A stretch of 64,000 nt of DNA from Lichina pygmaea (lineage: Eukaryota > Ascomycota > Lichinomycetes > Lichinales > Lichinaceae): positions 1,860,001 to 1,924,000 of the forward strand of contig OY730170.1 of the NCBI GenBank assembly GCA_963422465.1, read 5' to 3'. The notes under the pieces were generated by a model, which saw only the letters and a program-made list of their open reading frames with translations, was not told the origin of the DNA and made no database searches. This document shows positions 1,120 through 63,300 of the stretch, piece by piece; the stretch's first letter is position 1, and every line of letters starts with the position of its first letter. The position numbers were made by a program, and so were the translations under genes.

Positions 1120-1592
1120 TGACACCTGATCAATGGCTTTGTACAAAGGATTGTATTGAAGTAGATCTAGTTGTCTGGATCACAACATGAGTTGAAGACG
1201 ATCGTTCCATAAGGGAACTATCGCCTGACTATATAGTGCTGGCCTGTCAAGATGATCAAGATTGTCTTGACAGTCTTGACGTCAAGACAGGTGAGATTGT
1301 CTTGACAGTCCCACCATGTTATGCACCCTGTGTCAAGACTGGTGAGATTGTCTTGATGCTTCATACATCATGCGTCAAGACTGGTGAGATTGTCTTGATA
1401 CTTCATGCATCATGCGTCAAGACTGGTGAGATTGTCTCGATGCTTCATGCATCATGCGTCGAGACTCCTGTGTGTGTCTCAACAGTCACGTGACCCCTTG
1501 TTGGTTGGTCACTTGACTTCCATGGTGTCCTCTTGCCTGGCCCACGGCCTGATTGCCTATAAATGAGTGGCTCCCATCCCTGGGTTGTAACA
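1120..1592 (-). repeat. LTR of Ty3/gypsy family I, copy 1
   Basis: The repeat begins TGACACC and ends TAACA on the plus strand (TGTTA...GGTGTCA in the element's own orientation), so it has TG...CA ends. It is 473 bp. The same sequence recurs at 4958-5855. It contains a tandem array of a unit of about 42 bp around GTCAAGACTGGTGAGATTGT between about 1240 and 1475. Confidence 0.8.
1240..1475. repeat. 42-bp minisatellite inside LTR I
   Basis: About five imperfect units of roughly 42 bp follow one another, each beginning GTCAAGACTGGTGAGATT (the first units carry CAGG instead of CTGG). A longer and more degenerate array occupies the matching place in the second LTR, at about 5080-5345. Confidence 0.8.
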
Positions 1593-2301
1593 ATCCTCAA
1601 CTATCTCTCCTAAGTGGAAATTCACTTGGTTAAGTCAAATAACTACTAACCAGGCTAGTTCAAAGAAAGAACTACAAAAGCTTTTTACTAAAGAGTGGGA
1701 AGACCAATAGGAAGAGAAGAAAAGAAGAAGCTATCCAGGCTGGCAGACTTTCTGTCAAAAGCCACACAAAAACAATCTGAAGCTCTACAAAGAGTTACAG
1801 AAAGCTGAGGCAAGTCTGCTACTGCAAATCAGGACTGGAAGAATTGGTCTGGCAAGTTTTCTTTTCAGAGTGGGAGTTCCTGACTTCCCTACCCCACTAT
1901 GTGTGTGTGGCCAAGCAGAAGAAACTGCAAAACATATCACCTCTTCATGCTCTCTTTATTCAAGACAGACAACAAGTCTCTTTTAATCCCCAAGACTTCA
2001 CCACTATTATTTCAAACCCAGAGCTACTACAGAAGTTCTTGTACTGGTTTATGTCTTTGAAAAGACTAAACCAGTTTAATCTAGCTTTCAAACTCCACTA
2101 TTCCCAATCCAATACCTAGATTCTCTTCTCTTACCAGAAACTTCAAGATTCCTTTTGTTACATTCCCTAGTCACACCCTGCCTTCAGTTTTTATCCCCTC
2201 AAAGGTTTTCTGAAGAAGTTCACTATTAGCTAGAAGATCTGCATGGCTGTAAAGCTACTACCAGTGTAAGAATCAAATAAATAAAATAAATAAAAATAAA
2301 A
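1593..2301 (+). mobile_element. LINE 3' end fragment (Tad-like), A-rich tail
   Basis: This is the 3' end of a non-LTR retrotransposon. It reads through the C-terminal end of ORF2, including the Cys/His motif CVCGQAEETAKHITSSC at about 1905-1955, with an in-frame TAG near 1708. It then has a short 3' UTR and a tail of AATAAA-like repeats ending at 2301. The same LINE subfamily forms the 3' part of the chimeric insert at 11,800-12,544, nearly identical by eye. Its left edge is the LTR of Ty3 copy 1, which probably inserted into it. Its right edge lies inside the reverse transcriptase region of Ty3 copy 2, so the LINE probably inserted there first. Confidence 0.8.
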
Positions 2302-4957
2302 TCAGGTTGTATACTTCTTTCAAGTCCAGCTTGGTGAAGATTATGGCTTGGCTGATCCTGTCTTGCAATTTGTTCACATTTGGTAATAGATATCAGTTTT
2401 TGATAGTAATGTTGTTGAGTTTCCTGTAATCCACACAAAGTTGAAGACTTCTGTCTTTCTTTGGTGCAAATAGTATTGGGTATCCTGCTGGTGATTGAGA
2501 TTCTTGAATGAAACTCTTTTTCAGGTTTTCCTCCAGGTACTCACGAAGTACTTGAAGCTCTTTCTCTGATAACTGGTAAATTGGTCTAAATCCTGGCTCT
2601 GTCCCTGGTTGCAACTTGATCTCATGATCCCAAGGTTGGTGCTTAGGCAACACTGCTGTTGTTGTCTCTTCCTGAAAGAGGTTATTATACCCAGGTCAGT
2701 ACTCTTCAGGGATCTCCAGAGGGTTAACAACTTCCTCTCTCTTCATCTCTGACTGTTTGGCCACCTGGTTCCAGAGTGTGCCTGTCAAGGTGGACTTTTT
2801 CTCTTGAGAGTTGTCCTTTCTGTCAGTGAGGTTCCACTGAAGACTCTTTCCCTTATCTGTCCATGCCTTCTGTGGCTGGTAACAGGTCTGAGCTGTGTTG
2901 TTAGTGCAGTTTCCAAATGTGAGTACTCCTGTCTTCCAGTTAACAACTGGGTTGTACTTCTTTAGCCAAGGTATCCCCAAATAGATATTCTGAGTGGCCA
3001 ACTTGACAATATCAAGGTGGATCCTTTCAGTATAGTGTCCAGTAACTATTTCCATTGGCTGTGTCTCATGGCAGACTAGCTCTGTCTGTCCATTTACCAT
3101 CGCAAGCTGGTAGGGCTGTTGCTTACATCTCTTTCCAGTGCTAAGGGTATTGTAAAATTGTCTTGAAATATAGTTTCCACTGGCTCCAGAGTCAACAAGT
3201 GCATATATCTGTATTGGCGTGTTGGTGTGTAGTGACACAGGCAATCGCAGGTGCTTTGTGTTGCTAGAGGTCATGTTGTTGAGCTCCTGATGTCACCCCT
3301 TGACAAGGGAGTTCAGTCTTTTCCTGATTGAAGTGTTTTTCCACTGACTGGGCAATGGGTCCAGCTATTCCTATCAGTTCTGAGGAATCTGTTTATGAAT
3401 TTGTCTTGCTGATGCTTGTCGCATCCAGGCTTGAGGCAGTACTGCCAATTATCAACATAGCAGTTGTGGTTGTTGCCTTGCTATAGGAACATAAGGTGTT
3501 CGTGCCAATCATGTGTGTGCCCGGGGAATGTGGTGTGTTGGTGTTTGTTCCAGAGATAGGTTTCACACGTATCCTTCTTGCAATTGACCCAATGTTTGTG
3601 GCAGGTGGTGTGGTAGGGTGAATGTCCTCCGTACTTTTGTAGTTGTTTGTGGTAGGTGCAGTAGTACTTTGTGCAAAACCTCCACTGCAGTTCACTGTGC
3701 TGTAGGTTTTGTGGGTCTATGCTGTAAGTATAGCTTCCTTGTAGTATTTCTTCTTTGATAGACACAGGTTTGTCTCAGTCCCCATCAGAGGTGGTTAAGG
3801 GCTCCTGTCCCTTGTCCTGACCTGTTAGTTCTGGTAGGTCCTTGCCTCCTGATGTTGCCAGTTGGTGGGCTACTTCCAATATCTGATTGTAGTTGTCCTA
3901 TTATTCAAGGGATAGCTGAGCCTCTCCTGGCAGGTCCTCTGGCTTGATGACATTCCAGTCTCTGTCAAGTGTATTAAGTTGCTGTCAGTGCACCTTGTTC
4001 TTTGAACAACAGTCTTTCACCATGTAGCCTAGCTTGCCACAGGCATAGCACTTCAGTGCTTTCCTCTTTTTGTTGTTTCTTCCCTTTGTGAACCTTCCCT
4101 AATGGTGGACTGCATCCAGTTCTATGGGTGTATAGCTATATGAGTTATGTGGCAGTGCCTTGTTAGGTGGCTTGTAGTGGTTGCTCACATGCCATGCGGG
4201 GTGGCTGTATCCTCTGTTGTGGTGTTTCTCCATCACTTACTTGAATAGTTTGTCATCAATGTTGATTGCTTGTGCGATGAGTTTGTCCAGTGTCTTGACC
4301 ACTCATCTGTCAAAGGTGATTTTATTCTTCATGTTTTCCTTGAGTCCACATCAGTACATGACCATCAGAGCATTATTGTCCCAATCAGTCAGTACTGAGT
4401 ATTGTTTGAACTGCGTGGTGTACTCTGTGGCTGAGTGTTGTTGTTTGATGTGCTGGATCATTTGTATAGCCACTTTGTCTTTGTTAGATAGTCCAAGAAT
4501 CCTCTTGATCTTGTCTTTGAATCATGTCCATTTCATCATCCATTCTGATATGCCATCATGGTCTCTGTTTCCTGAGAGATGTTTGTTGACGTAGAGCTTG
4601 ATCTATCAATAAGTATTACCTCTCATGTAAGTGGTTGCGAAGAGGGGCCACTTCTCCTTAGGCAGCTTCATCTCTGGTTAGAATTGAAAGTAGACTTGGA
4701 GTTGCATAAGCCAGTCATCAACCTTGTTTCTTTCACTGTAGAACAGGTCTGGCTTGGCAACACTAATCTTTCCATCTGGGAAGTCAGGGTTGGTTACTCC
4801 TGAGGTACTCATCCTTGAGGGTCTTCAAAGTGTTGCAGTCTGTACTGTGCTGTCCTAACTGAGTATAGGATTAAGGACAAGATGTGGAAGTCAGGTTGGT
4901 TCTCGCAGGAGAGGAGTGTCAAGGAGTGCGAAGGGGTTTGGTAGAATGTGGTGGTGG

Positions 4958-6194: not shown

Positions 6195-7598
6195 ATGTCA
6201 AAGAAAAAACCAGAGAAAGAGAAAGAAAACCAGCCTTCTCCAAGCTCCCAGCAATCCCCAGTGGCTAACTCCCTGACAGACCAATCCCAGACTCAAGAAA
6301 AAGAAGAAGAGAAGGGGCTGACACCTCCCCAGCTAGTGGAAGAATAGCTTATCCACACAAAAGCTCCCCAACACATCAAAAAAGCATGGGATAGTATTCT
6401 GTCCAAAGTGGCAGAAGCTCTGGACAAAGATATCTCTACTCACTCACCTAACTCCCAGAGTCTCCAGAAGATACTTGAGAGACTGGACAGCATTGAGAAA
6501 CAAGTCCAAAAACAAAACACCAAGCCAACATATGCCCAGGCAGCCCAGAAAACAGTAGGACAGGAAATCCCTGTTCCAACCAGAATCCACAGTGAAATCA
6601 CTATCAGACCTGGAACTCAGACTGGCCAGTTAGCAAACAGAACACCAGCCCAGCTCATGGAAGCTCTCAAGAAGAAAACACCACTCTCCTGCCAAAAAGA
6701 AATAAGAGCAGCCAGAAAACTACCCTCAGGAGATATTATAATCTCTCTGGAAACTCCTCAAGCCAAGACTCAGCTAGAGGAAAACAAGGACTGGATCCCA
6801 GCTGTCTTTACAGCAGAGGCCAAGATATCACCCAGAATCTTTCCAGTGCTAGTCCATGGGGTGCAGACAAAAGACTTCAAGCCAGAAAACCTGGAGGAAA
6901 CAAAAAAGACAATCTTCTCCCAAAACCCTGGGATGGAAAGTAAGGTCAACATCCTAAGAACCTACTGGTCCAGAAAAGCCAAACTCCTCCAGAAGCCAGT
7001 CACATCTCTACATCTGGATCTAGCCACCCCAGAGCAAGCAAACCTCCTAATTGAGAAAGGAGTAGTTCTAGGATACACTCTACATGAAGTAGAACCAACC
7101 CTGCTAGCAACATCAGTCACCCAGTGCTACAAATGTGCTAGGTTTGGACACCAAGCACGCACTTGCCAAGCCCAAGCCCAGTGCACAGCCTGTGGAGGAA
7201 AGTATGCCAGAAGAGACTGCCAGACTTCTCCAGAAACTCTAACACCAAAATGTGCAAACTGCAAGGGAAACCACCCAGCCTGGTCAAAGTCCTGCCAGAA
7301 AAAACAGGAAGCAATCCAGAAAGCAAGAGAGGTATGGCTAGCAAGACCAGGGAGGTACACAATAGCTCCCAGACTAGCTCTACCTCAGACTCCCTCAACA
7401 CAAGAAAAAAAGCCAAGTCTACAAGACAGACAAGAAGCTAAGAAAAGAAAACAAGGGGAAGTACTAAGAGTATACTCAAGCTCAAGACTGAACACTCAGC
7501 TCCCCACTTTCCCACTTGCACAGAACTCAGAGTTCCAAATCAACATACCCAGAAAAAAAGCTACTGAGATCTTGGAAGACTCTAGCCAAGAGGATTAA
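6195..7598 (+). pseudogene. LINE-1 ORF1 (gag-like, zinc-knuckle RNA-binding protein)
   Basis: ORF1 of a LINE makes an RNA-binding protein that packages the element RNA. The ATG at 6195 (MSKKKPEKEKEN) is followed in frame by a TAG at 6345-6347. The rest stays open to the TAA at 7596-7598. The N-terminal part is Lys/Gln rich with a short coiled-coil stretch (LERLDSIEKQVQKQ). The C-terminal half has three clustered CCHC knuckles: CYKCARFGHQARTC, a less regular CTACGGKYARRDC, and CANCKGNHPAWSKSC. LINE-2 carries the same three. The stop codon overlaps the ORF2 start as TAATG. Confidence 0.8.
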
Positions 7599-10544
7599 TG
7601 AGTTACTCCACACTTAACCTTCTCCAGTACAATGTCCAGAAAAGCCAGATATGCCAAGAACTTCTACTGGCAAACTCTAGACTACAGGAAGTGGACATTA
7701 TCACTCTGCAAGAACTCTGGAAAAACCCCCACCAAGAATCAAGCATCTCTACAACATTCTCAGCCTTCTACCCTTTACAAAGCCAGGAGCTAGGGAGAAC
7801 ACTTGTTCTTGTTAACAGAATAATTTTGCGGTTATCTATAAGCCCAATTTTCTGGAGTAAAGATCTAGTCTCCTTGGAGATAAGAGTTCAAACAAAGTTA
7901 TTCTGGATCCACAACCTCTATTTCGCACCCACAAGCCAAAGGAACTATAGAGAGTCAGCTCAGACTCTTCTAGACCTACTGGAACAAGCTATCCAAAAAG
8001 AGGGTGAACATATTCTCCTGACAGACTCAAATCTCCACCACCCAAGTTGGTCAAAGTCAAGCCAGCTATACTCAGAACTGGCCTTATCCTTCAAGAACCT
8101 AACAGACAAATAGGGACTAGAGCTGGCAATAGCTCCCTACACACCAACAAGAGCAAGAACTCTTCTAGAACCACCTTCATCAGCAATTGATCTTTCTTTT
8201 ATTTCAAGTCCTTTACTTAATTCTCTTATTTACTCACAAATTAACATGAGATTCCACACAGGGTCAGACCACAGACCAGTGCACACAATTCTCAGTCTGG
8301 AAACTCCAAGAAAAACCAGAACAGACAAAAAGAACTGGAGAACTCTGGATGCTAGTCAAGCAAGACAAGAAGCTGATAACCTACCACCTATTCTATCTCT
8401 AACCAGCAAGAAAGAAGTGGATGATTACCTGGAAAGACTGGACAAAACTCTCCAAGAAATTGCAAACAAGACAACCCAACCTTGCAAAGAGTCCAGGTAT
8501 GCAGTACCATGGTGGAACCAGGAAATTAAAGAAATAATCCAGGAGGAAAGAAAATTAAGAAGAAAAGTACTCCAAGGCCAAGAGGAAACCACCAGACTAG
8601 AGGAGATAACTAAAAAGAAAAAGAGTCTGATCAGACAGGCCAAAAGAAAGACATTCAGAACACATCTCCACCAGCTAGCAGAAACCCAGGACTACTGGAG
8701 AATTACCAAATAGGGAAAAGAAAAAGCCGGCAAAGTTCCTGACCTACCAATAGTCCCAGAACTTATAGGACAACAAGGACAGCTGGCAAAGTCTTTTGAA
8801 GAGAAAACAGAAGCTTTCAGGACTCAATTCTTCCCTCTTCCCCTACAGCCAGAGCTAGAGGAACAGGACCTGCCAGAAGAAACCCAGGAATAGCAACTAT
8901 CCCAAGAAGTCTCCAAGGAAGAAGTACAAGAGGTTCTAAAGAAGAAAAAACCTCTCTCAGCACCAGGCCAAGATACTCTACCAAATGGATTTCTAAGAGC
9001 ACTGGGAGACTCTTTCAACAAAAGAATTGCTAAGGTTTTGGAGGCTTGCTGGAGACTGGAATACTTTCCAGACAGGTACAAGTCAGCCAAGACAATCTGC
9101 CTAAGGAAACCTGGCAAGGGATCCTACTGTCAAGCAAAAGCATGGCGCCCTATAGCTCTCCTGAATACAATTGGGAAGCTAATAGAAGCTATTGCAGCTG
9201 CAAGACTAAGTGAACTAGCTGAGAAAGAAAATCTCTTGCCAGAAATCCAGATGGGATTCAGAAAAGGAAGATCAACAGAATCAGCACTTTTTCTTCTGAC
9301 CTCCCAGGTAGAAAAGATCTGGAAAGAAGGAATGGTTGCTAGTCTTCTCTCTCTAGACATCTCTGGAGCCTATGACAGAGTCTTGCCAGAAGTTCTCAGA
9401 AAGATCCTGATTAAGAGAAAGATTCCTAAGTGGTTTGTATCCTGGATCTTTTCCTTCACTACTTCACGTACTACCTCTCTGGTGTTTGATGACTCAGAAT
9501 CCCCCCAGTTCCCTATATACTGTGGAGTCTCTCAAGGATCACCTTTCTCTCCTATTCTATTTCTTTTCTATATCTCAGAACTGCACAATACTGTACACAC
9601 CCCTGAGAAAGGAGTTTCAGCACTTGGTTTTGCAAATAACACTAATCTTCTTGCATTCTCCTCTTTCTTGAAAAGCAACCTTCTCAAGTTGAAGTCTACA
9701 TATTCCAAATATCAGAACTGGGCAAGAAAACATGGTATGAAGTTTGCACCTGAAAAGTATGAACTTCTCCATTTTTCTAGAAGAAGAAGAGACAATCTTC
9801 AACTCAGTCTAAGACTTGGAGAAGTGGTACTTCAACCAAAAGAAGAAGTGCGCATCTTGGGACTTTACTTTGACTCAAAACTTGTCTGGAAAAAACACCA
9901 AAAAATCATGTCACAGAAAGCTTCCAAATATTTCTCAGCTTTATCCAGAACAACCTACTCTACTTAGGGACTACCAGTCCTAACAGCACATCATGTCTAC
10001 ACTGCTATACTAAGATCTCTTCTTAGTTATGCAGTAGGAGTCTGGTTCAATCCCCAAAAGAAACTCTCTAATATTATTTCATTATCTACTTTCCAAAATA
10101 AATGTTTAAGAACTATAGGAGGTGTCTTTAAAGCCACTCCTATTTTCCTACTTGAATCAGAACTATTTCTACCCCCTCTAGACTTATACTTCAAGCTGAG
10201 AACAGCATGTTTTCTTTCATCTTTCTATTCAAACACACTACCCAACTCTCCTTCTACACTTCTCCACAAACTACACAGTCAAATTTCTCTCTATGTTTCT
10301 TCTCTCAGAACTACACCAAAGTCTCTGACAACTATTTCTCTAAACTGGAGAACAGTCTGGCTGGAACAACTAACTACTAACCAAGACTTCTCAAAGAAAA
10401 GTCTACAGGAGGTTTTCCACAAAGAATGGGAAGCCAGATGGCAGGTAAGCAGAGGAAATTGTTCTGCTATTTGGGACATGTTCACCAGAAGGCCACAGAC
10501 GAAAAACCTCAATATCTTCAAAGATTTGAGAAAAGCTGAGTCTA

Positions 10545-10613
10545 GTCTATTTCTTCAAATTCTGTCAGCAAGAATAGAACGTCTATTTCTTCAAATTCTG
10601 TCAGCAAGAATAG
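10545..10613 (+). repeat. 36-bp tandem duplication in LINE-1 ORF2
   Basis: A block beginning GTCTATTTCTTCAAATTCTG occurs at 10,545 and again at 10,581. At protein level it repeats LFLQILSARIER. The related LINE 3' fragments at 1593 and 11,800 have a single copy, so this is a private in-frame duplication. Confidence 0.85.
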
Positions 10614-10676
10614 GACTGGCCAGTTTTCTTTTCAGAGCAAATGTTCCAGACTTTAACTCCCCTCTATGCACCTGTG

Positions 10677-10787
10677 GTCCTGCGACGACTCAAACCTCCA
10701 CGTGGTGCAGGCTGGGAACCTCGGGGCAGCGATGGCAGGCAGTCTCCCAAGCTGCTTGTAGTCGCTGCACCGAGAGCTAATTGAGTC
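10677..10787 (+). ncRNA. HDV-like self-cleaving ribozyme, copy A
   Basis: The 5' end of the module folds by hand into the nested double pseudoknot of hepatitis-delta-like ribozymes. P1 is 10,677-10,683 with GCAGGCT at 10,707-10,713. P2 is GACTCAA (10,687-10,693) with TTGAGTC (10,781-10,787). P3 is ACC (10,694-10,696) with GGT (10,704-10,706) around loop TCCACGT. GGGAAC follows at 10,714-10,719. P4 is CTCGGGGCAGCGA (10,720-10,732) with TCGCTGCACCGAG (10,762-10,774), one mismatch. J4/2 is AGCTAA with the expected catalytic C at 10,777. Here the first two bases are GT instead of GG, which coincides with the edge of the target duplication. Copy B has the full GG. Confidence 0.75.
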
Positions 10788-11799
10788 ACCGGTCGAGCTG
10801 CTGGTGCCCGCGGAGCGACGGGCCGCCGGAGGTGTCGCGCAGGCACCCTGGACACCCCCGTGAAGCGACATCAGCAGAACAGAGGACTTCGACCAAACTG
10901 GTTATGAAAAACACCCGACGGATGTCTACCGTGTACGCTACGGTCTGAAGCCAGCCTTGCAACTGGTGGATGTGAAGTCTAGACACCTGACAGGGCACCT
11001 CTGGAGTAGACGAGAGGAGTTCCTATCGCACACCCCCCTTCTAGCAGAGTCTCCAGCAGCTGATGCATCGAGGATCTTGTTCTAGGAGGGGAGTGATGTC
11101 TGTACCGCGGTGTTGTTAATCGAACAGGGACTACGTGTTAAAGAAGGCGAGCAGGTGGCACGAAGGGTTTCCGCCGCTCCAGTACCTAAGGGCCGTGTGA
11201 TAGTCAAAGTGCTGGCTTGATGGTTTTGCCTAAGGTCTTGCCACGGATTCTCTTCAGGCCACCTACGGACCGGGGCCAGGGCACTGGATCTCCAGTGGGC
11301 CACCACGTACAACCGGGGCCCCACAGGCGACAGCGGGCAGACGGAGACTTCTCCCTACTTGGTTAGTGGGCTGGAAAGGCAGTCCTGCAGGTGCTGGCAT
11401 GGCCTGCAGGGTCCGTAGAGCCTGCGAGGCATGGTCGGCCTCTGTACGAGAGATCTACAGAGGTAACGTGAAACAGCGAGAGCTGCGGGGCGTGGCATAT
11501 AATGGCAGTGACAGCAGTAGGGTCTGGGCCTACTACGAGACTGTCTATATGGCCTGAGAGGACGGAAGCGCATGCCGGTCCGTACAGAGTGCAGGCTCAG
11601 GCTGCAAATGACGGGCTCAAGGAGCAAACTGCAGTTGGAGCGTGGGCTCCGGGCTGGCAACCCGGCGCTCCGAAGCAGGACCTAGGGGTGAGCGTACACG
11701 GCGGAGCGCAAAAGGCCTGAGGACTGCGGAGAAGCGTGGCAGAGACCCTGCAAGGGATAGCGACTCTGCGCTATGCCTCGGCATAGCTCAACTGTGGCC
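10679..11799 (+). repeat. 1.1-kb non-coding module, copy A
   Basis: It matches 59,181-60,320 on the opposite strand. Several GC-rich hairpins are visible, among them GGAGCG...CGCTCC around 11,637-11,672 and the terminal GCTATGCC-TC-GGCATAGC at about 11,770-11,787. Its GC content is well above that of the surrounding LINE-1. Confidence 0.85.
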
Positions 11800-12544
11800 A
11801 GCTATACCTCTCTCTTGAAGAAACCTTTAAAGGAATCCTCAACTATCTCTCCTAAGTGGAAATTCACTTGGTTAAGTCAAATAACTACTAACCAGGCTAG
11901 TTCAAAGAAAGAACTACAAAAGCTCTTTACTAAAGAGTGGGAAGACCAATGGGAAGAGAAGAAAAGAAGAAGCTATCCAGGCTGGCAGACTTTCTGTCAA
12001 AAGCCACACAAAAACAATCTGAAGCTCTACAAAGAGTTACAGAAAGCTGAGGCAAGTCTGCTACTGCAAATCAGGACTGGAAGAATTGGTCTGGCAAGTT
12101 TTCTTTTCAGAGCTGGAGCTTCTGACTTCCCTACCCCACTATGTGTGTGTGGCCAAGCAGAAGAAACTGCAAACATATCACCTCTTCATGCTCTCTTTAT
12201 TCAAGACAAAGACAACAAGTCTCTTTTAATCCCCAAGACTTCACCACTATTATTTCAAACCCAGAGCTACTACAGAAGTTCTTGTACTGGTTTATGTCTT
12301 TGAAAAGACTAAACCAGTTTAATCTAGCTTTCAAACTCCACTATTCCCAATCCAATACCTAGATTCTCTTCTCTTACCAGAAACTTCAAGATTCCTTTTG
12401 TTACATTCCCTAGTCACACCCTGCCTTCAGTTTTTATCCCTTCAAAGGTTTTCTGAAGGAGTTCACTATTAGCTAGAAGATCTGCATGACTGTAAAGCTA
12501 CTACCAGTGTAAGAATCAAATAAAATAAAAATAAATAAAAAAAA
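11800..12544 (+). repeat. LINE 3' end forming the 3' part of chimera A
   Basis: The segment encodes the C-terminal part of a LINE ORF2 in one frame (SYTSLLKKPLKESS, then LQIRTGRIGLASFLFRAG and the motif start CVCGQAEE near 12,138-12,165). It ends with WFMSLKRLNQFNLAF, a short UTR and an A-rich tail. It matches 1593-2301 with few differences but starts about 35 bp further upstream in the LINE. Confidence 0.85.
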
Positions 12545-12956
12545 ATGCACCTGTGGTTTTGGAGAAGAAACAGCCCAACACATCACTTTTTTCTGTAACA
12601 AATTTTCAAACCAAAGACAACAAGTCCAATTCCCTCTACAAGATTTCCCATCTATCTTATTCTCCTCCAAGCTACTTCCTAAACTTCTTTTCTGGTTTAT
12701 GTCTTTGAAAAGACTTGACCAGTTCAACCTAGCCCACCAACTCTCTTTCTAAGCTCTACCAAGTCAACTGTTTGTTTTAACAAATAGCTACATGTACAAA
12801 TTTCCTTAGCTACTGTATATTCCACAAGATTTTCCCTAGTCTCTCCCAAGCTCCAGTTTTTATTCCTCCAAAGGTTTTCTGGAGAAACAAATATGTACCT
12901 AGAAGTTCTGCATGGCTCTACAGCTAAATCAGTGTAAGAATAAAATAAAAATAAAA

Positions 12957-14264
12957 TTGTCTCAGACAGAGGAGGTCAGTTTGTCAGCTTATTCTGGAAA
13001 GTACTCTGTGCCTATTTTGACGTCATGCTACAACTATCCTCAGAACACCACCCAGAGACAGATAGTCAGACAGAACAAGAGAATCAGGAGCTTGAACACT
13101 ACCTGAGATTCTATGTCAACTATCTCCAAGATGACTGGGTCCAATGGCTTCCTCTGGCAGAGTTCACGCAGAACAACTCCCAGTCTGATCCCTCTGGCAT
13201 GTCACTGTTCTTTGCCAACAAAGGGTTCCATCCACAGCTCAGCATCACACCCACAAGTGAAGCCTGCAACCAAGATGCTATGGAAATCTCTGGAGAAATA
13301 ACGCAGATTCTGGAACAGTTGCAAGCTGAACTCCGACTATCCCAGAAAGCTCAAGCTCACACCACCAATTTGCATCAAGTCCTGTCACTGTCCTATCAAA
13401 CTGGAGATCTTGTTTGGCTGAATAGCAAGAACATCAGGACATGCCACCCATGCAAAAAGCTTGACAACAAGTGGATTGGACTATTCAAGGTGTTGAAGAT
13501 AATCGGAAGCTGTGCCTGCCATCTGGAGCTTCCACACACTCTCAAGATCCACCCTGTCTTTCATGTTTCCCTTCTACGTCTGACACCTGCTAATCCTATC
13601 CCTGGCCAATCAAATGAACACCCTGGCCCTGTCATTGGTCAAGACACAGATGAAGAGTTCCAGGTTGAAGAAATCCTTGACTCCAAGCCAGCAATGTCTT
13701 GACAGAAGTTCAAGTACCTGGTCAAATAGTCTGGATGGCCAATTGAAGATGCCACTGAAGAGCCTATTGAGCATCTTGACAACACCAAAGACACTATCTA
13801 CAACTTCCATAAGAAATACCCAAGGAAACCACAGCCATGGAACTACGCCCACAAGCGGCCTGAGGCTCACAGGAGTTCGCCATGTGAAGAAGGGGGGTAA
13901 TGTCACAGTTCTGGCCCAGTTGCATATCTGGCACAAGTCACACACCTTGCCGGGAAGTCCTATCTGCACTGTTACCTGCTTGCTCCGCTGTTGTCACGGT
14001 TCTGGCCCAGTTGCATATCTGGCACAAGTCACGCACCTTGCTGGGAAGTCTTATCTGCACTGTTGCCTGCTTGCTCTGCCGTTGCCTGATCCCCTGCCTA
14101 TGAGAACTTCTCCTGCTTCCCCAGCTTCTTCTCTTCTTCTTTTCTCTTTTCCTTCCTTGCCTTTCGTCTTGTACATCAATCCAAGTCTCAAGTCTCAAGC
14201 CAAGTCAGGTCAAGGTTACCAAATCAGTTAGGCTCGAGTTCTGCTCTGCCATTGCCTCGTCACA
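12957..14264 (+). mobile_element. Ty3/gypsy family III, 3' remnant (integrase end, chromodomain, 3' LTR)
   Basis: A plus-strand fossil missing its 5' part. It opens in the integrase core (SDRGGQF, then SSEHHPETD at about 13,031-13,058). It continues through the integrase C-terminal region (HPVFHVSLLR near 13,552) into a chromodomain-like stretch at about 13,650-13,800. A purine-rich tract (AAGAAGGGGGGTAA) lies just before the 3' LTR at 13,901-14,264. The 5' edge coincides with the tail of LINE-1, which therefore probably inserted into this element's integrase. The copy is broken. Its LTR is unlike those of families I and II. Confidence 0.8.
13901..14264 (+). repeat. 3' LTR of Ty3/gypsy family III, with a 91-bp tandem duplication
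   Basis: It begins TGTCACAGTTCTGG after a polypurine tract and ends CTCGTCACA. The first 91 bp (13,901-13,991) are repeated from 13,992 with a few transitions, so the true LTR start could be either copy. Confidence 0.65.
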
Positions 14265-58575: not shown

Positions 58576-58759
58576 GTACTCGAGCACTTGATTGATTGAT
58601 TGAATTCCTACACCGTTCTAGCTCTAGTGTATCTAGGCTATGCCGGGTCAACTATAAAATCAGGCTAGGAAAACTCCAACGAGTAAAAAAACCTCTCCCT
58701 GCAGCACCTAAGGCAGTGCTATCCTATCGAGTAATCTGTGAAACATGGGGGGTGACTGG

Positions 58760-59180
58760 CTAGTAGCCAGTCTCCAGCTGCTCCTGAGCCCAGGAGAACT
58801 GCGGAAGGACACCGTGGCGTAGGATCCACGAGGTGAGGGCGGCGGCGGGCCGTGGGCGTGATATCATCGCCTGGTAGTCAGTAGTAGCCGCCGCAGTGTA
58901 TAAACTGCGGCGTACTCGCTGCAGCCGTGGGCAGTCTAGGATGACATGCTTGGCAGTCTCCCACTGTGCCCCGCAGCTGCAGGCAGGCGTCGGGAAGCCA
59001 GGGACTCGACGCTTGCAAAGAAAGGCAGCCAGCCCGACCTTACCTGTACGTATCTGCGTTAAGATACTGCTCTGCGCTTTGGAGAGGCCAGCTCGGAGCC
59101 GGAGAGTTGCCCGGTATGGCATCTTGTCCGGCTTCCAATTATCACCACCTCCGGGGTCTGGGTCGAGCAGTTGCACCTGC
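58760..59180 (-). pseudogene. C-terminal end of a GC-rich LINE ORF2 (3' part of chimera B)
   Basis: From the junction on, the frame reads PQVQLLDPDPGGGDNWKPDK and continues open to the TAG/TAA at 58,760. The C-x-C...H...C motif CSCGAQWETAKHVILDC is the usual C-terminal Cys/His element of fungal LINEs. The upstream ORF2 (endonuclease, RT) is absent, so the copy is 5'-truncated and non-autonomous. Codon use is much more GC-rich than in LINE-1 and LINE-2, marking a separate LINE family. Confidence 0.8.
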
Positions 59181-60320
59181 GGCCACAGTTGAGCTATGCC
59201 GAGGCATAGCGCAGAGTCGACATCCCGTGCAGGGTCTCTGCCACGCTCCCCCGCGGTCCTGAGGCCTTTTGCGCTCCGCCGTGTACGCTCACCCCTAGGT
59301 CCTGCTTCGGAGCGCCGGGTTGCCAGCCCGGAGCCCACGCTCCAACTGCAGTTTGCTCCTTGAGCCCGTCATTTGCAGCCTGAGCCTGCACTCTGTACGG
59401 ACCGGCATGCGCTTCCGTCCTCTCGGGCCATCTAGACAGTCTCGTAGTAGGCCCAGACCCTACTGCCGTCACTGCCATTATATGCCACGCCCCGCAGCTC
59501 TCGCTGTTTCGCGTTACCTCTGTAGATCTCTCGTACAGAGGCCGACCATGCCTCGCAGGCTCTACGGACCCTGCAGGCCATGCCAGCACCTGCAGGACCG
59601 CCTTTCCAGCCCACTAACCAAGTAGGGAGGAGTCTCAATCTGCCCGCTGTCGCCTGTGGGGCCCCGGTTGTACGTGGTGACCCACCGGAGAACCTCCGAA
59701 CAGAGAATCTCCGGTGCCCCGGCCCCGGTCCGCAGGCAGTCCGAAGGGAACCCGTGGCAAGGCCTTAGGCAAAACCATCAAGCCAGCACTTTGGCTATCA
59801 CACGGCCCTTAGGCACTGGAGCGGCGGGCTTCCTCCGGGCTGCCTGCTCGCCTTCTTGAACACGTATTCCCCGTTCGATTAACAATGCCGCGGTGTAGAT
59901 ATCGCTCCCCTCCTAGAACAAGATCCTCGACGCATTAGCTGCTGGAGACTCTGCTAGGGGGGGTTGTGCGATGAAAACTCCTCTCGACTACTCCAGAGGT
60001 GCCCTGTCGGATGCCTAGACTTCACATCCACCAGCTGCAGGGCTGGCTTCGGGCCGTAGCGTACACGGTAGACATCCGTCGGGTGGTTTTCATAACCAGT
60101 TTGGTCGCAGTCCTCTGTTCTGCTGATGTCGCTTCACGGGGGCGTCCAGGGTGCCTGCGCGACACCTCCGGTGGCCCGTCGCTCCACGGGCACCAGCAGC
60201 TCGACCGGTGACTCAATTAGCTCTCGGTGCAGCGACTACAAGCAGCTTGGGAGACTGCCTGCCATCGCTGCCCCGAGGTTCCCAGCCTGCACCGCGTGGA
60301 GGTTTGAGTCGTCGCAGGCC
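59181..60320 (-). repeat. 1.1-kb non-coding module, copy B
   Basis: This is the same sequence as 10,679-11,799 in inverted orientation, about 95% alike by eye outside the first 110 bp and nearly identical inside them. It has no long open frame in common that looks like a protein. It ends in a perfect 8-bp hairpin GCTATGCC-TC-GGCATAGC followed by TCAACTGTGGCC. Confidence 0.85.
60210..60320 (-). ncRNA. HDV-like self-cleaving ribozyme, copy B
   Basis: Counting from G1 at 60,320, the elements are as follows. P1 GGCCTGC (1-7) pairs with GCAGGCT (31-37), closing in a G1-U37 wobble as in the HDV ribozyme. P2 GACTCAA (11-17) pairs with TTGAGTC (60,216-60,210). P3 ACC (18-20) pairs with GGT (28-30) around loop TCCACGC. 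GGGAAC follows P1. P4 CTCGGGGCAGCGA pairs with TCGCTGCACCGAG with one mismatch. J4/2 is AGCTAA, where the C would be catalytic. The predicted cleavage site is just before G1, exactly at the element's 5' edge next to the target duplication. Confidence 0.82.
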
Positions 60321-60333
60321 GTACTCGAGCACT

Positions 60334-63300
60334 ACTGTACGTATATGCCCCTTATCTAGCTGACCAACGCTACTGACTAAGCCAGGCTAGCCCCAGGCCC
60401 TACCTAGGGCCGCAACAGTTGTTCACAGTTCATCTGTTCAGTATCTGTGATGTTTGTCTGTTTCTCCATCACTATCATCGTCATCACCATCAACATCCCC
60501 ACCGTTCCACATACAAGAGTTGTAAGGAGAAAACTATCTTCAGCTCCAGAACACTGGAAGCAGATAATACCAGAACAGCGGTGGTGGTGATGAGCGAATT
60601 GTCTACTCGTAGTGTATGTAGGTGTGGTGCCATCAAGCTCAGCTACTCCTACATGAGCTACGAATCATTCTCACTTTTAGCTAGGTTTGCAATAGTAGAC
60701 TCTGTGATGTTCCAAGTGATGGTCATGAGGGTTCTGTGATTACAGGCAGTAAGTAGGTCTGACCTCTCTGCTGCTTGGGATTGGCATGTTTGCGGGATAA
60801 AGTGGTCAGTGTTCTATAATATACCGTACGAGTAGTGGTGTTGTGTGCCTTATACTTGGAATGGATATTTTGATATAGCTACACTTCGGAGAGAGGCTGT
60901 AGGTTCGTAGTAGCTGACTAGTATAGTGTCCATTGGTTATTGTTGCGATTAGGTACGGATGGGTCACTCGTGTGGGGATCCACAAAATACCGGGTGTCCA
61001 GTTTTGTAGCCACTGGCATGAAAGAAAGCAAAAGAAGAGTAGACCAGAAGGTCGACTTCAATTACCTTGCCTTCCTAGCAAAGTGAGCAGTCACATGGAC
61101 GCATGCACACTATAACTCCTGGCTCTGATTTGGACTCCTTGCGTACGCGGTTCCATGGACTTGTCACCCAAGTTGGTAGTGGCTGTGTGCAACACGGCCC
61201 TGTTGCAAATTCAGCAGTGTTGTCATCATACTACATGCTGTAAGGGAAGTGGTTGGCCAACCCTGTTCGAGGACACGATTAGCTGATCTGATCTGTGCGC
61301 CCTTGCAGACACTCGGGGTCGGACCACCGCCCCACAAAACAGTGATTGCATCAAGCAAGATGGCTGTACTCTCGGCAACCAACAATCGCAGACGTTGGGG
61401 CACGCAAGGAGACTGCAGTCCCTAGCCTCCAATCTATGGATGGTGGTGTGCTGCTAACCTGTCAAGAGTCTGGTCGCTACGGTATTGGCCGGTACGGCGG
61501 GTAGTGGAGGGCTGGAAAAACTCTTGTTTTTTCCCTGGGACCCGCAGAGATTGTTTGATGCTCACCAGAGGGAGTGGACAAGAACGGAGATGTCGATCCT
61601 GGGCCTGCATCGACGGCGAGTCATCCTGCACATGTGTGGATCTCCCCGCTGTGGTCGGTTCAGCCATGGCCCAATCGACTCCTCACGTTCTTCCAAAGGC
61701 AGCAAGCGTCGCGGTTCTCAAGGTGCAAGAACCGAAATCAGCAGTACAGAGTCGCCCGCAGCTACTTATCGAGGATGAAGTTCAGAATTTTCCAGTGTTG
61801 TCTCCGAGTGTCGACCTTCGCGTATTGATCATCACGGACGATCGGCATGGAAAAAAAGCATCAGATATCGTCGAATAGTACCCCCCCGCAACATCTCCAG
61901 TCGTTGCAGCTGAAACAACAACCACAGCCACGGCCACGGCTCGACGTTGGTGTTTTGTGTTGGGTCGAATGTTTCATGCTCGAGCGCGGTGGGCCGAGTC
62001 GCAGCTTTTCTTGGAAGTCACCGTATGACGATACGAGAGTCTCGAAAGACGGTCCCGACGGACTCGGCGGTGGTTGCACGAAACGTCTTTCCATGCAAGG
62101 GCAGAGTTCTGTACTGACGTACTGACGTACTGACGTACTGACGTACTGACGTACTGACGTACGTACGTCACTTGGGACAGGACAACACCCACCACGATTT
62201 CCTGTGGAGGGTGCGGCTCGGGTCGTCATATCGCGGACAATGTTTTGTTTTCCGGTTCAGCCAAGAAGCACAGTCAGACCACGACCACTAGCACCGCCCT
62301 ACCAGTACGTAGTACCTTCGTACGTATGGACAGTTGCTCTCGCATCCGACTTCTGTGCTACGGAAGTACAGAACGTATGGAGCTACTGTGGCTGACGATG
62401 CCAGCCCCTGTCTGACCTGGACCCAGGAGCTACAGTGCTGCTAAGCTCGGTTGTCTTTCATCGAGAAACTTGGTGGCAGATGGAGTCAGCTGCTTCTCAG
62501 CTGTGCCATCGAACGCCAAGAGCCGACGGCTTCAAGCACGGACTCGATGCTCTCACAAGACCTCTGGCAATGGCTTCCGACGTCACAGCCCATGAACCTC
62601 GGCGTTGCGAGTTACTACAGTACCGTACTCCCGTACGCTCCGGACGTGTGTACGGAACTAGGGAAGTGTGGCCGCCGCACTTACAGGCCCAAAGACTATC
62701 CTTGGGCTGGGCTTACCTCGTACGTACAGTATGTACTACGTACGACTGGCAGGCTTCCGAGGAACAGCTCGCTGGCATCCACGATGCCGCCTGACGCCGC
62801 GGGAAGCGGAGAGAGCACCGCGGACAGTGGTGAAGTGGTGATCGGCCTGGGTTCCTTGGTTCTGGCGCCCACCTACCGGCTTCGTTCGGGTTCGGCGTCG
62901 ACCCGATCGAACTAGACGGACACAGAAAACAAACGAACGGATGGAGCAGCTCCGGCCTCCCGCTGTTGAAGGGCGGCTCGTCGGCAATCACGCCTCCCGA
63001 ACTCGGTCACGCCTCTGAACTCTGAACGGTCGTCCAGCCAGGCCAGCAACTGCTTCAATCGACCGATCACCTCACGATTGGAATTTACATGATTGCCGAC
63101 CACTTCACATCGGGTGAAAGTCTCATGGCCGATTGAGTATGACGATAACAACATTGGCGCATCTTCCCACGCTGCGGCTGGGGGGGCAGGAGAACCCAAC
63201 GAGCCCAAGCCATGCGACTCAGCACGCCCCCGAGGAACTTGATACGGCATACATCGACATCAGTGACCATCGACGGCATTCCAATCCGACATGCCTCCGC

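What the first reader, a model, noticed from the sequence alone, without database searches (positions are those of the whole stretch)
60210..60320. HDV-like self-cleaving ribozyme at the exact 5' end of a fungal retro-module
Seen in sequence: all five helices of the HDV-type fold can be drawn with perfect or nearly perfect pairing. The spacing is that of HDV itself (P1 closing at position 37 with a G-U wobble, a 3-bp P3 with a TCC-starting loop, J4/2 AGCTAA). The cleavage site would fall at the first base of the insert, right beside its target duplication. Established knowledge: HDV-like ribozymes sit at the 5' ends of R2, some other non-LTR elements and L1Tc-type elements and define their RNA 5' ends. 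Inference: this module's RNA is released by self-cleavage before retro-integration. I know of no report of it on this kind of fungal element.
Basis: partly seen in the sequence, partly recalled or inferred. Interest (0 to 1): 0.93.

Follow-up and report, generated by a model that had tools for sequence, protein, structure and literature searches.

The report
Self-cutting RNA heads fungal retro-hitchhiker
A piece of fungal DNA that looks copied back from RNA begins, to the base, with what looks like a self-cutting RNA of the hepatitis-delta type, and the RNA it heads appears to have spread by being joined to the tails of different jumping genes.

Summary
On the minus strand, base 60320 is both the first base after a 13-bp target duplication and position 1 of an HDV-like fold with P1, P2, P3 and P4, room for P1.1, and the J4/2 cytosine (60220). 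Rfam's HDV model gives 41.2 bits over its full length (E 5e-4 in a 2-kb search; below its gathering score of 50). The second copy scores 31.3 bits. No other RF00094 match appears in the window at E up to 10.

The wider anatomy changes the reading. The ribozyme heads a ~1,140-nt non-coding module present twice (67 substitutions in 1,120 aligned bases). Both copies end at the same base, then continue into 3' ends of two different LINEs, each insert with its own 13-bp duplication. That is the architecture of the WEIRD-MGL "MINE" chimeras of Magnaporthe, whose 1.1-kb 5' RNA has no known function or gene, and it resembles the R2/R1 hybrid SIDEs of Drosophila.

Best reading: a ribozyme-processed RNA picked up by LINE reverse transcriptase through template jumps. 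Fungal HDV ribozymes are already published; a link to such a module was not found in my searches. Cleavage is untested. Copy 2 lacks the first two bases and is probably inactive.

The parts
60210..60320 (-). HDV-like ribozyme of copy 1; predicted cleavage 5' of G60320
   Evidence: RF00094 41.2 bits, model 1-89 of 89, at 60322-60207; helices listed; single site found by my descriptor
60314..60320 (-). P1 5' strand GGCCUGC, pairs with 60290-60284
   Evidence: 7 of 7 pairs, G1-U37 wobble
60304..60310 (-). P2 5' strand, pairs with 60216-60210
   Evidence: 7 of 7 pairs
60291..60303 (-). P3 (3 bp) and L3 UCCACGC; CC can form P1.1 with GG after P1 (by inspection); L3 holds the conserved U and G
   Evidence: the L3 G-U reverse wobble as a conserved feature is from PMC3774820 section 12
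60223..60277 (-). P4 hairpin
   Evidence: -36.6 kcal/mol
60217..60222 (-). J4/2 AGCUAA, candidate catalytic C at 60220
   Evidence: aligned to the conserved GGCuAA of RF00094; position
59181..60320 (-). 1,140-nt non-coding module, copy 1
   Evidence: shared with copy 2 from base 3 to the end; stops in all three forward frames
58589..59180 (-). 3' end of LINE A: C-terminal zinc-finger coding part, 3' UTR, TCAA-repeat tail
   Evidence: protein 58763-59182 is related to LINE B (28 of 56 identical, 3e-17); Pfam gives only matches below cut-off: VMAP-M8 E 0.0067 (taken as chance) and zf-RVT E 0.013
60321..60333 (.). target duplication of copy 1, 5' side
   Evidence: AGTGCTCGAGTAC
58576..58588 (.). 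target duplication of copy 1, 3' side
   Evidence: AGTGCTCGAGTAC
10679..11799 (+). module copy 2, lacking the first 2 bases and an 18-nt stretch in the middle
   Evidence: RF00094 31.3 bits at 10674-10790
11800..12544 (+). 3' end of LINE B with A-rich tail
   Evidence: 98% identical to the separate copy at 1592-2302; protein similarity to LINE C begins at residue 3 of the B piece, at the junction
10666..10678 (.). target duplication of copy 2, 5' side
   Evidence: ATGCACCTGTGGT
12545..12557 (.). target duplication of copy 2, 3' side
   Evidence: ATGCACCTGTGGT

Best explanation
The site is an HDV-like self-cleaving ribozyme that makes the 5' end of a ~1,140-nt non-coding fungal RNA. That RNA is not itself a LINE. 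While a LINE reverse transcriptase was copying its own RNA from the 3' end at a nicked target, it left that RNA early, jumped to the 3' end of the module RNA, copied it to (or to within two bases of) its ribozyme-made 5' terminus and integrated there. This happened at least twice, from two different LINEs. Shown here: the fold, its position at the exact insert start of copy 1, the shared module with the same 3' end, two different LINE tails in the same orientation, and 13-bp duplications on both inserts. Inferred: that the RNA cleaves, that cleavage makes the free module RNA, that the joining was by template jump, and that the module ends are those of a real RNA.
For: RF00094 match over the full model at the insert start and at the start of copy 2, no other RF00094 match in the window at E up to 10. 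All four helices, the U and G of L3, and the C of J4/2 are present. Descriptor background 4 hits in 200 simulated windows. Ribozyme region (module 1-113): 1 substitution in 111 aligned bases, in L3, against 66 in 1,009 elsewhere; binomial P 0.005 under a uniform rate. The module ends at the same base in both copies, then different LINEs follow. LINE B protein similarity begins at the junction. A LINE B copy without a module lies at 1592-2302. The same architecture is described for Magnaporthe MINEs: full-length 1.1-kb non-coding WEIRD, 5'-truncated LINE, duplications of 10-20 bp, explained by template switching (PMC2104539, sections 3, 5, 9).
Against: The score is below Rfam's gathering score (41.2 against 50; 31.5 bits and E 1.2 in the whole-window run). 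My descriptor does not find copy 2. Only two copies, nearly identical in the ribozyme, so there is no covariation. The low-divergence argument is weak: the rate is not uniform, the 3' part of the module is also conserved (15 substitutions over 681-1140) and 114-226 has only 4. Copy 2 lacks the first two bases. The pseudoknot-free minimum-energy fold keeps P1 and P4 but not P3. No RNA data, no other genome, no homologue found: 4 DNA patterns and 2 LINE proteins in viral contigs and 1 DNA pattern in genome contigs found nothing (32, 33; 35), though by description those collections hold viruses, bacteria and archaea, not fungi. With two inserts, an internal jump from one LINE onto a copy-1-type RNA would also give a shared module end. 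In copy 1 LINE similarity starts only at 59119, so the module end could lie up to about 60 bases further on there.
Confidence: 0.7

Rival explanations
1. The module is the 5' untranslated part of an autonomous LINE not present in this window, which carries an R2-like ribozyme. The two inserts are hybrid short elements of the SIDE type, mobilised as units by LINE A and LINE B.
For: R2, R2 SIDEs and R2/R1 SIDEs have this logic: ribozyme at the 5' end and, in the hybrids, a foreign LINE 3' end (PMC3414825, passages).
Against: Both fusions use the same 3' end of a 1.14-kb stretch with stops in all frames. The two LINEs with reading frames recognised in the window (6.4-10.7 kb plus strand, 14.2-16.5 kb minus strand) have no module copy or RF00094 match near them except the nested copy 2 itself.
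Confidence: 0.15
2. Copy 1 is a single non-autonomous element (module plus LINE A tail). Copy 2 arose when LINE B's reverse transcriptase jumped onto an internal point of such an RNA, so the module has no 3' end of its own.
For: With two inserts this needs no free module RNA.
Against: The jump would have to land within about 60 bases of the LINE A junction (similarity of A to other LINEs starts at 59119, module identity ends at 59181). In Magnaporthe the 5' RNA is reported as full length while LINE truncation varies (PMC2104539).
Confidence: 0.12
3. A chance or long-dead HDV-like fold without activity.
For: Below gathering score; copy 2 has a broken P1; no activity data.
Against: Full-model match, placement at the exact insert boundary, descriptor background of 4 in 200 windows, 1 substitution in 111 bases between copies.
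Confidence: 0.06

Closest known systems
WEIRD-MGL chimeras (MINE) of Magnaporthe (PMC2104539: sections 3, 5 and 9 read, other passages)
   Same: ~1.1-kb non-coding 5' RNA, full length, fused in the same orientation to 5'-truncated LINE 3' ends, duplications of 10-20 bp
   Different: No ribozyme is reported for WEIRD (the word has 0 occurrences in that text); there 31 of 33 chimeras have one LINE (MGL) as tail; sequence relation to WEIRD could not be tested
R2/R1 hybrid SIDEs of Drosophila (PMC3414825, passages)
   Same: HDV-like ribozyme at the 5' end, foreign LINE 3' end, 14-bp duplication (13 bp here)
   Different: Their R2 part is only the ribozyme plus 5-8 downstream bases, they sit in rDNA, and their authors think DNA recombination the likelier origin; here a 1.14-kb module, no rRNA match in the window
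HDV-like ribozyme of R2 elements (PMC3774820: abstract, outline, sections 12, 18 and 19)
   Same: Cleavage site at or near the element 5' end; 5' junctions vary where cleavage is exactly at the end, compare copy 2
   Different: R2 is an autonomous site-specific animal element
Fungal HDV ribozyme variants (PMC5640933, passages)
   Same: Fungal, HDV-like; an extra base between P2 and P3 if P2 is counted as 6 bp
   Different: Here G-U and not C-G at the cleavage site, and no loop E was recognised in P4 (no motif search run); no link to retro-insertion in that main text

Membership tests
HDV-like self-cleaving ribozyme | Nested double pseudoknot: P1 ~7 bp, P2, 3-bp P3, P4, P1.1 | tested here: met
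   All pairs listed; RF00094 full-length match. P1.1 by inspection only. Copy 2 has a broken P1.
HDV-like self-cleaving ribozyme | Catalytic C in J4/2, U and G in L3 | tested here: met
   C at 60220; L3 UCCACGC
HDV-like self-cleaving ribozyme | Score at or above the curated RF00094 cut-off | tested here: not met
   41.2 of 50 bits; 0 matches at gathering score. I take the cut-off to be fitted to HDV itself; that is recalled, not from a call.
HDV-like self-cleaving ribozyme | Self-cleavage 5' of P1 | not testable with these tools
   Needs in vitro transcription
HDV-like self-cleaving ribozyme | Covariation among relatives | tested here: inconclusive
   Two copies, identical at the paired positions present in both
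Fungal HDV variant of Li and Breaker | C-G pair at the cleavage site | tested here: not met
   G1-U37
Fungal HDV variant of Li and Breaker | Loop E motif in P4 | tested here: inconclusive
   Fold shows a hairpin with mismatches; no motif search was run
WEIRD-LINE chimeras (MINE) | ~1.1-kb non-coding RNA, full length, at the 5' end | tested here: met
   1,140 and 1,121 nt, same end, stops in all frames; 'full length' rests on two copies, one lacking its first 2 bases
WEIRD-LINE chimeras (MINE) | 5'-truncated LINE 3' end in the same orientation, duplications of 10-20 bp | tested here: met
   Two LINE tails, 13-bp duplications
WEIRD-LINE chimeras (MINE) | Sequence homology to WEIRD | not testable with these tools
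R2/R1 SIDE | R2-derived ribozyme, insertion in rDNA | tested here: not met
   Insertion in rDNA: copy 2 lies in a LINE, and the window has no rRNA match in the Rfam run at gathering score. R2 descent of the ribozyme was not tested.

The most novel reading that the evidence does not exclude
The module is a selfish or host RNA that spreads only by being the acceptor of LINE template jumps: its ribozyme cuts it out of any read-through transcript with an exact 5' end, and its fixed 3' end receives the jumping reverse transcriptase, whichever LINE that belongs to. WEIRD of Magnaporthe would be the same kind of RNA with an unrecognised ribozyme at its 5' end, which would explain why it is full length at that end and how it can be made without a gene of its own, none having been found.
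Probability: 0.3. Interest if true: 0.87.

Novelty: new variant of a known kind. Interest (0 to 1): 0.72.

Why it matters
If active, it links three things known apart: fungal HDV ribozymes whose role is unclear (published as having widely variable gene associations), the chimeric fungal retro-inserts with a 5' RNA of unknown origin, and LINE template jumping. It gives a direct test: does WEIRD begin with an HDV-like ribozyme, and are the 230 published fungal ribozymes at the 5' ends of retro-inserts? It would also show a way for a non-coding RNA to spread with several LINEs without carrying any one LINE's 3' recognition sequence.

Tried and rejected
Relatives: four DNA patterns in viral contigs and one in genome contigs gave 0 matches each (35). 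LINE A C-terminus and LINE C reverse transcriptase in viral contigs: 8 and 2 pattern hits, no confirmed relative. Own genome: none held, so copy number is unknown.

Rejected: single retro-element family (different LINE tails); repeat-induced point mutation in its classical CpA context as the cause of the copy differences (bases that are C in copy 1 and T in copy 2, both strands together: CpG 16, CpC 12, CpA 8, CpT 2; reverse direction CpA 6, CpC 5, CpG 3, CpT 1; that CpA is the classical context is recalled); sequence constraint unique to the ribozyme (the 3' part is conserved too).

Weak points kept: pseudoknot energies were not computed; without P2 the nested part scores -50.2 against a minimum of -51.8 kcal/mol for the whole stretch, the best fold keeping P1 and P4 but not P3. 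The fold z-score of module 1-228 is -3.7 against 60 shuffles, the other four segments -1.1 to -2.2. Gogvadze et al. give GCC|A/U as the donor-side switching motif and saw no microhomology; the module here ends in GGCC, followed by G in copy 1 and A in copy 2, but the donor LINEs' own sequence at these points is not in hand, so this could not be tested.

Literature: 9 searches. No listed title or abstract start joins an HDV-like ribozyme to a fungal retro-insert; one search listed 20 of 100 papers and 15 of 20; one search asked for 4 of 5 terms, so a paper with only 'ribozyme' and 'WEIRD' would not show. The library holds open-licence papers only; two works on HDV-like ribozymes were asked for and not held, so the claim of novelty is limited. 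Passages of PMC3978060 were seen and not used.

Full report
What was checked. The letters bear this out. P1 pairs 60320-60314 with 60290-60284, 7 of 7, closed by a G-U pair at ribozyme position 37. P2 pairs 60310-60304 with 60216-60210, 7 of 7. P3 is 3 bp with loop UCCACGC. P4 is a long hairpin from 60277 to 60223. J4/2 is AGCUAA with the candidate catalytic C at 60220. The two C of the loop can pair with the GG that follows P1 to give P1.1 (by inspection).

Is it more than chance? In a 2,001-base search, Rfam's RF00094 matched all 89 model positions with 41.2 bits and E 5.2e-4. This is below the family's gathering score of 50, and the run at gathering score listed nothing. The permissive whole-window run saw the same site with only 31.5 bits and E 1.2, and copy 2 with 31.3 bits and E 1.3. 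In that run these were the only two RF00094 matches at E up to 10 in 64 kb. A descriptor of my own, written after seeing the site, found this place only (registers 60320 and 60321), missed copy 2, and gave 4 hits in 200 simulated 64-kb windows, both strands. The predicted cleavage site falls on the first base of the insert, an independent fact that makes chance very unlikely.

Boundaries. Copy 1 runs 60320 to 58589 (minus) between two copies of AGTGCTCGAGTAC (60333-60321, 58588-58576) and ends in a TCAA-repeat tail. Copy 2 runs 10679 to 12544 (plus) between two copies of ATGCACCTGTGGT (10666-10678, 12545-12557) and ends in an A-rich tail; it lies inside the C-terminal coding part of another LINE. 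Copy 2 begins at module base 3. The target gives G-T where P1 needs G-G, so one P1 pair is lost and P1 weakens from -11.8 to -7.6 kcal/mol. P1 mismatches are uncommon in HDV-like ribozymes and have been proposed to explain missing activity (PMC3774820 section 12), so copy 2 is probably inactive. Variable 5' junctions are what R2 shows where cleavage is exactly at the element end (same paper, abstract).

The module. The two inserts share 1,140 and 1,121 nt (67 substitutions in 1,120 aligned bases, plus gaps). The identity stops in both at ...CAACTGTGGCC. Beyond it, copy 1 carries the C-terminal zinc-finger part of LINE A and copy 2 that of LINE B. These two proteins are related but distinct (28 of 56 identical); Pfam gives the LINE A piece only matches below cut-off, zf-RVT at E 0.013 behind an unrelated family at E 0.0067. 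LINE B occurs without a module, 5'-truncated, at 1592-2302 (98% identical). Protein similarity of LINE B to LINE C begins at residue 3 of the B piece, that is at the junction; for LINE A similarity to the other LINEs begins 62 bases after the junction. The module has stops in all three forward frames. In ribozyme positions 1-113 there is 1 substitution in 111 aligned bases, in the loop L3, against 66 in 1,009 elsewhere (P 0.005 for a uniform rate). But the rate is not uniform: 4 in 114-226, 9 in 227-340, 38 in 341-680 and 15 in 681-1140. So the two ends of the module are conserved and its middle is less so.

Mechanism. The simplest account: a free module RNA with two defined ends, the 5' end made by the ribozyme, was copied by LINE reverse transcriptase after a template jump from a partly copied LINE RNA. 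Gogvadze et al. proposed this template switch for the WEIRD-MGL chimeras of Magnaporthe (PMC2104539; sections 3, 5, 9). There a 1.1-kb non-coding RNA, described as full length, sits in front of 5'-truncated LINE ends with duplications of 10-20 bp, and no solo copy of it was found. That text does not contain the word ribozyme. The agreement in size, position, non-coding nature and truncation pattern is close, but sequence kinship with WEIRD could not be tested, so this is 'works like', not 'is'.

What is known. Fungal HDV ribozymes: 230 of a variant type in 26 species, two shown to cleave, 11 canonical ones before (PMC5640933, passages). Ours has G-U and not C-G at the cleavage site and so does not fit the variant type. 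Ribozyme plus foreign LINE 3' end: R2/R1 SIDEs (PMC3414825, passages). The combination here, a ribozyme heading a long non-coding module that is joined to different fungal LINEs, was not seen in the listings of nine searches of the open library (two searches listed only part of their papers); subscription papers are mostly not covered.

Limits. Only two copies; no genome, no relatives and no RNA data were available. No covariation can be claimed.

Noticed in passing
window 1592-2302: 5'-truncated LINE B copy with A-rich tail, 98% identical to the tail of copy 2, without module
   Followed up: yes
window 59181-59640 (minus) and the matching end of copy 2: The 3' 460 nt of the module are also conserved between copies (15 substitutions) and contain a palindromic stretch, GCTATGCCTCGGCATAGC, close to the module end, which could form a 7-bp hairpin; it may be a landing site of the reverse transcriptase
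   Followed up: partly
window 6400-12960: LINE C with endonuclease and reverse transcriptase frames, interrupted by copy 2 in its zinc-finger codons; a second, 73% similar LINE on the other strand at 14.3-16.5 kb
   Followed up: partly
window 13025-13702: Frame with a Tf2-1-like SH3 domain (Pfam 1.5e-18), perhaps remains of an LTR element in the same repeat cluster
   Followed up: no
copy 2, 10679-11799: 38 positions where copy 1 has C (either strand) and copy 2 has T, against 15 the other way; CpG is the commonest context (16 of 38)
   Followed up: partly
window 62110-62165: Short tandem array of TACTGACG units
   Followed up: no
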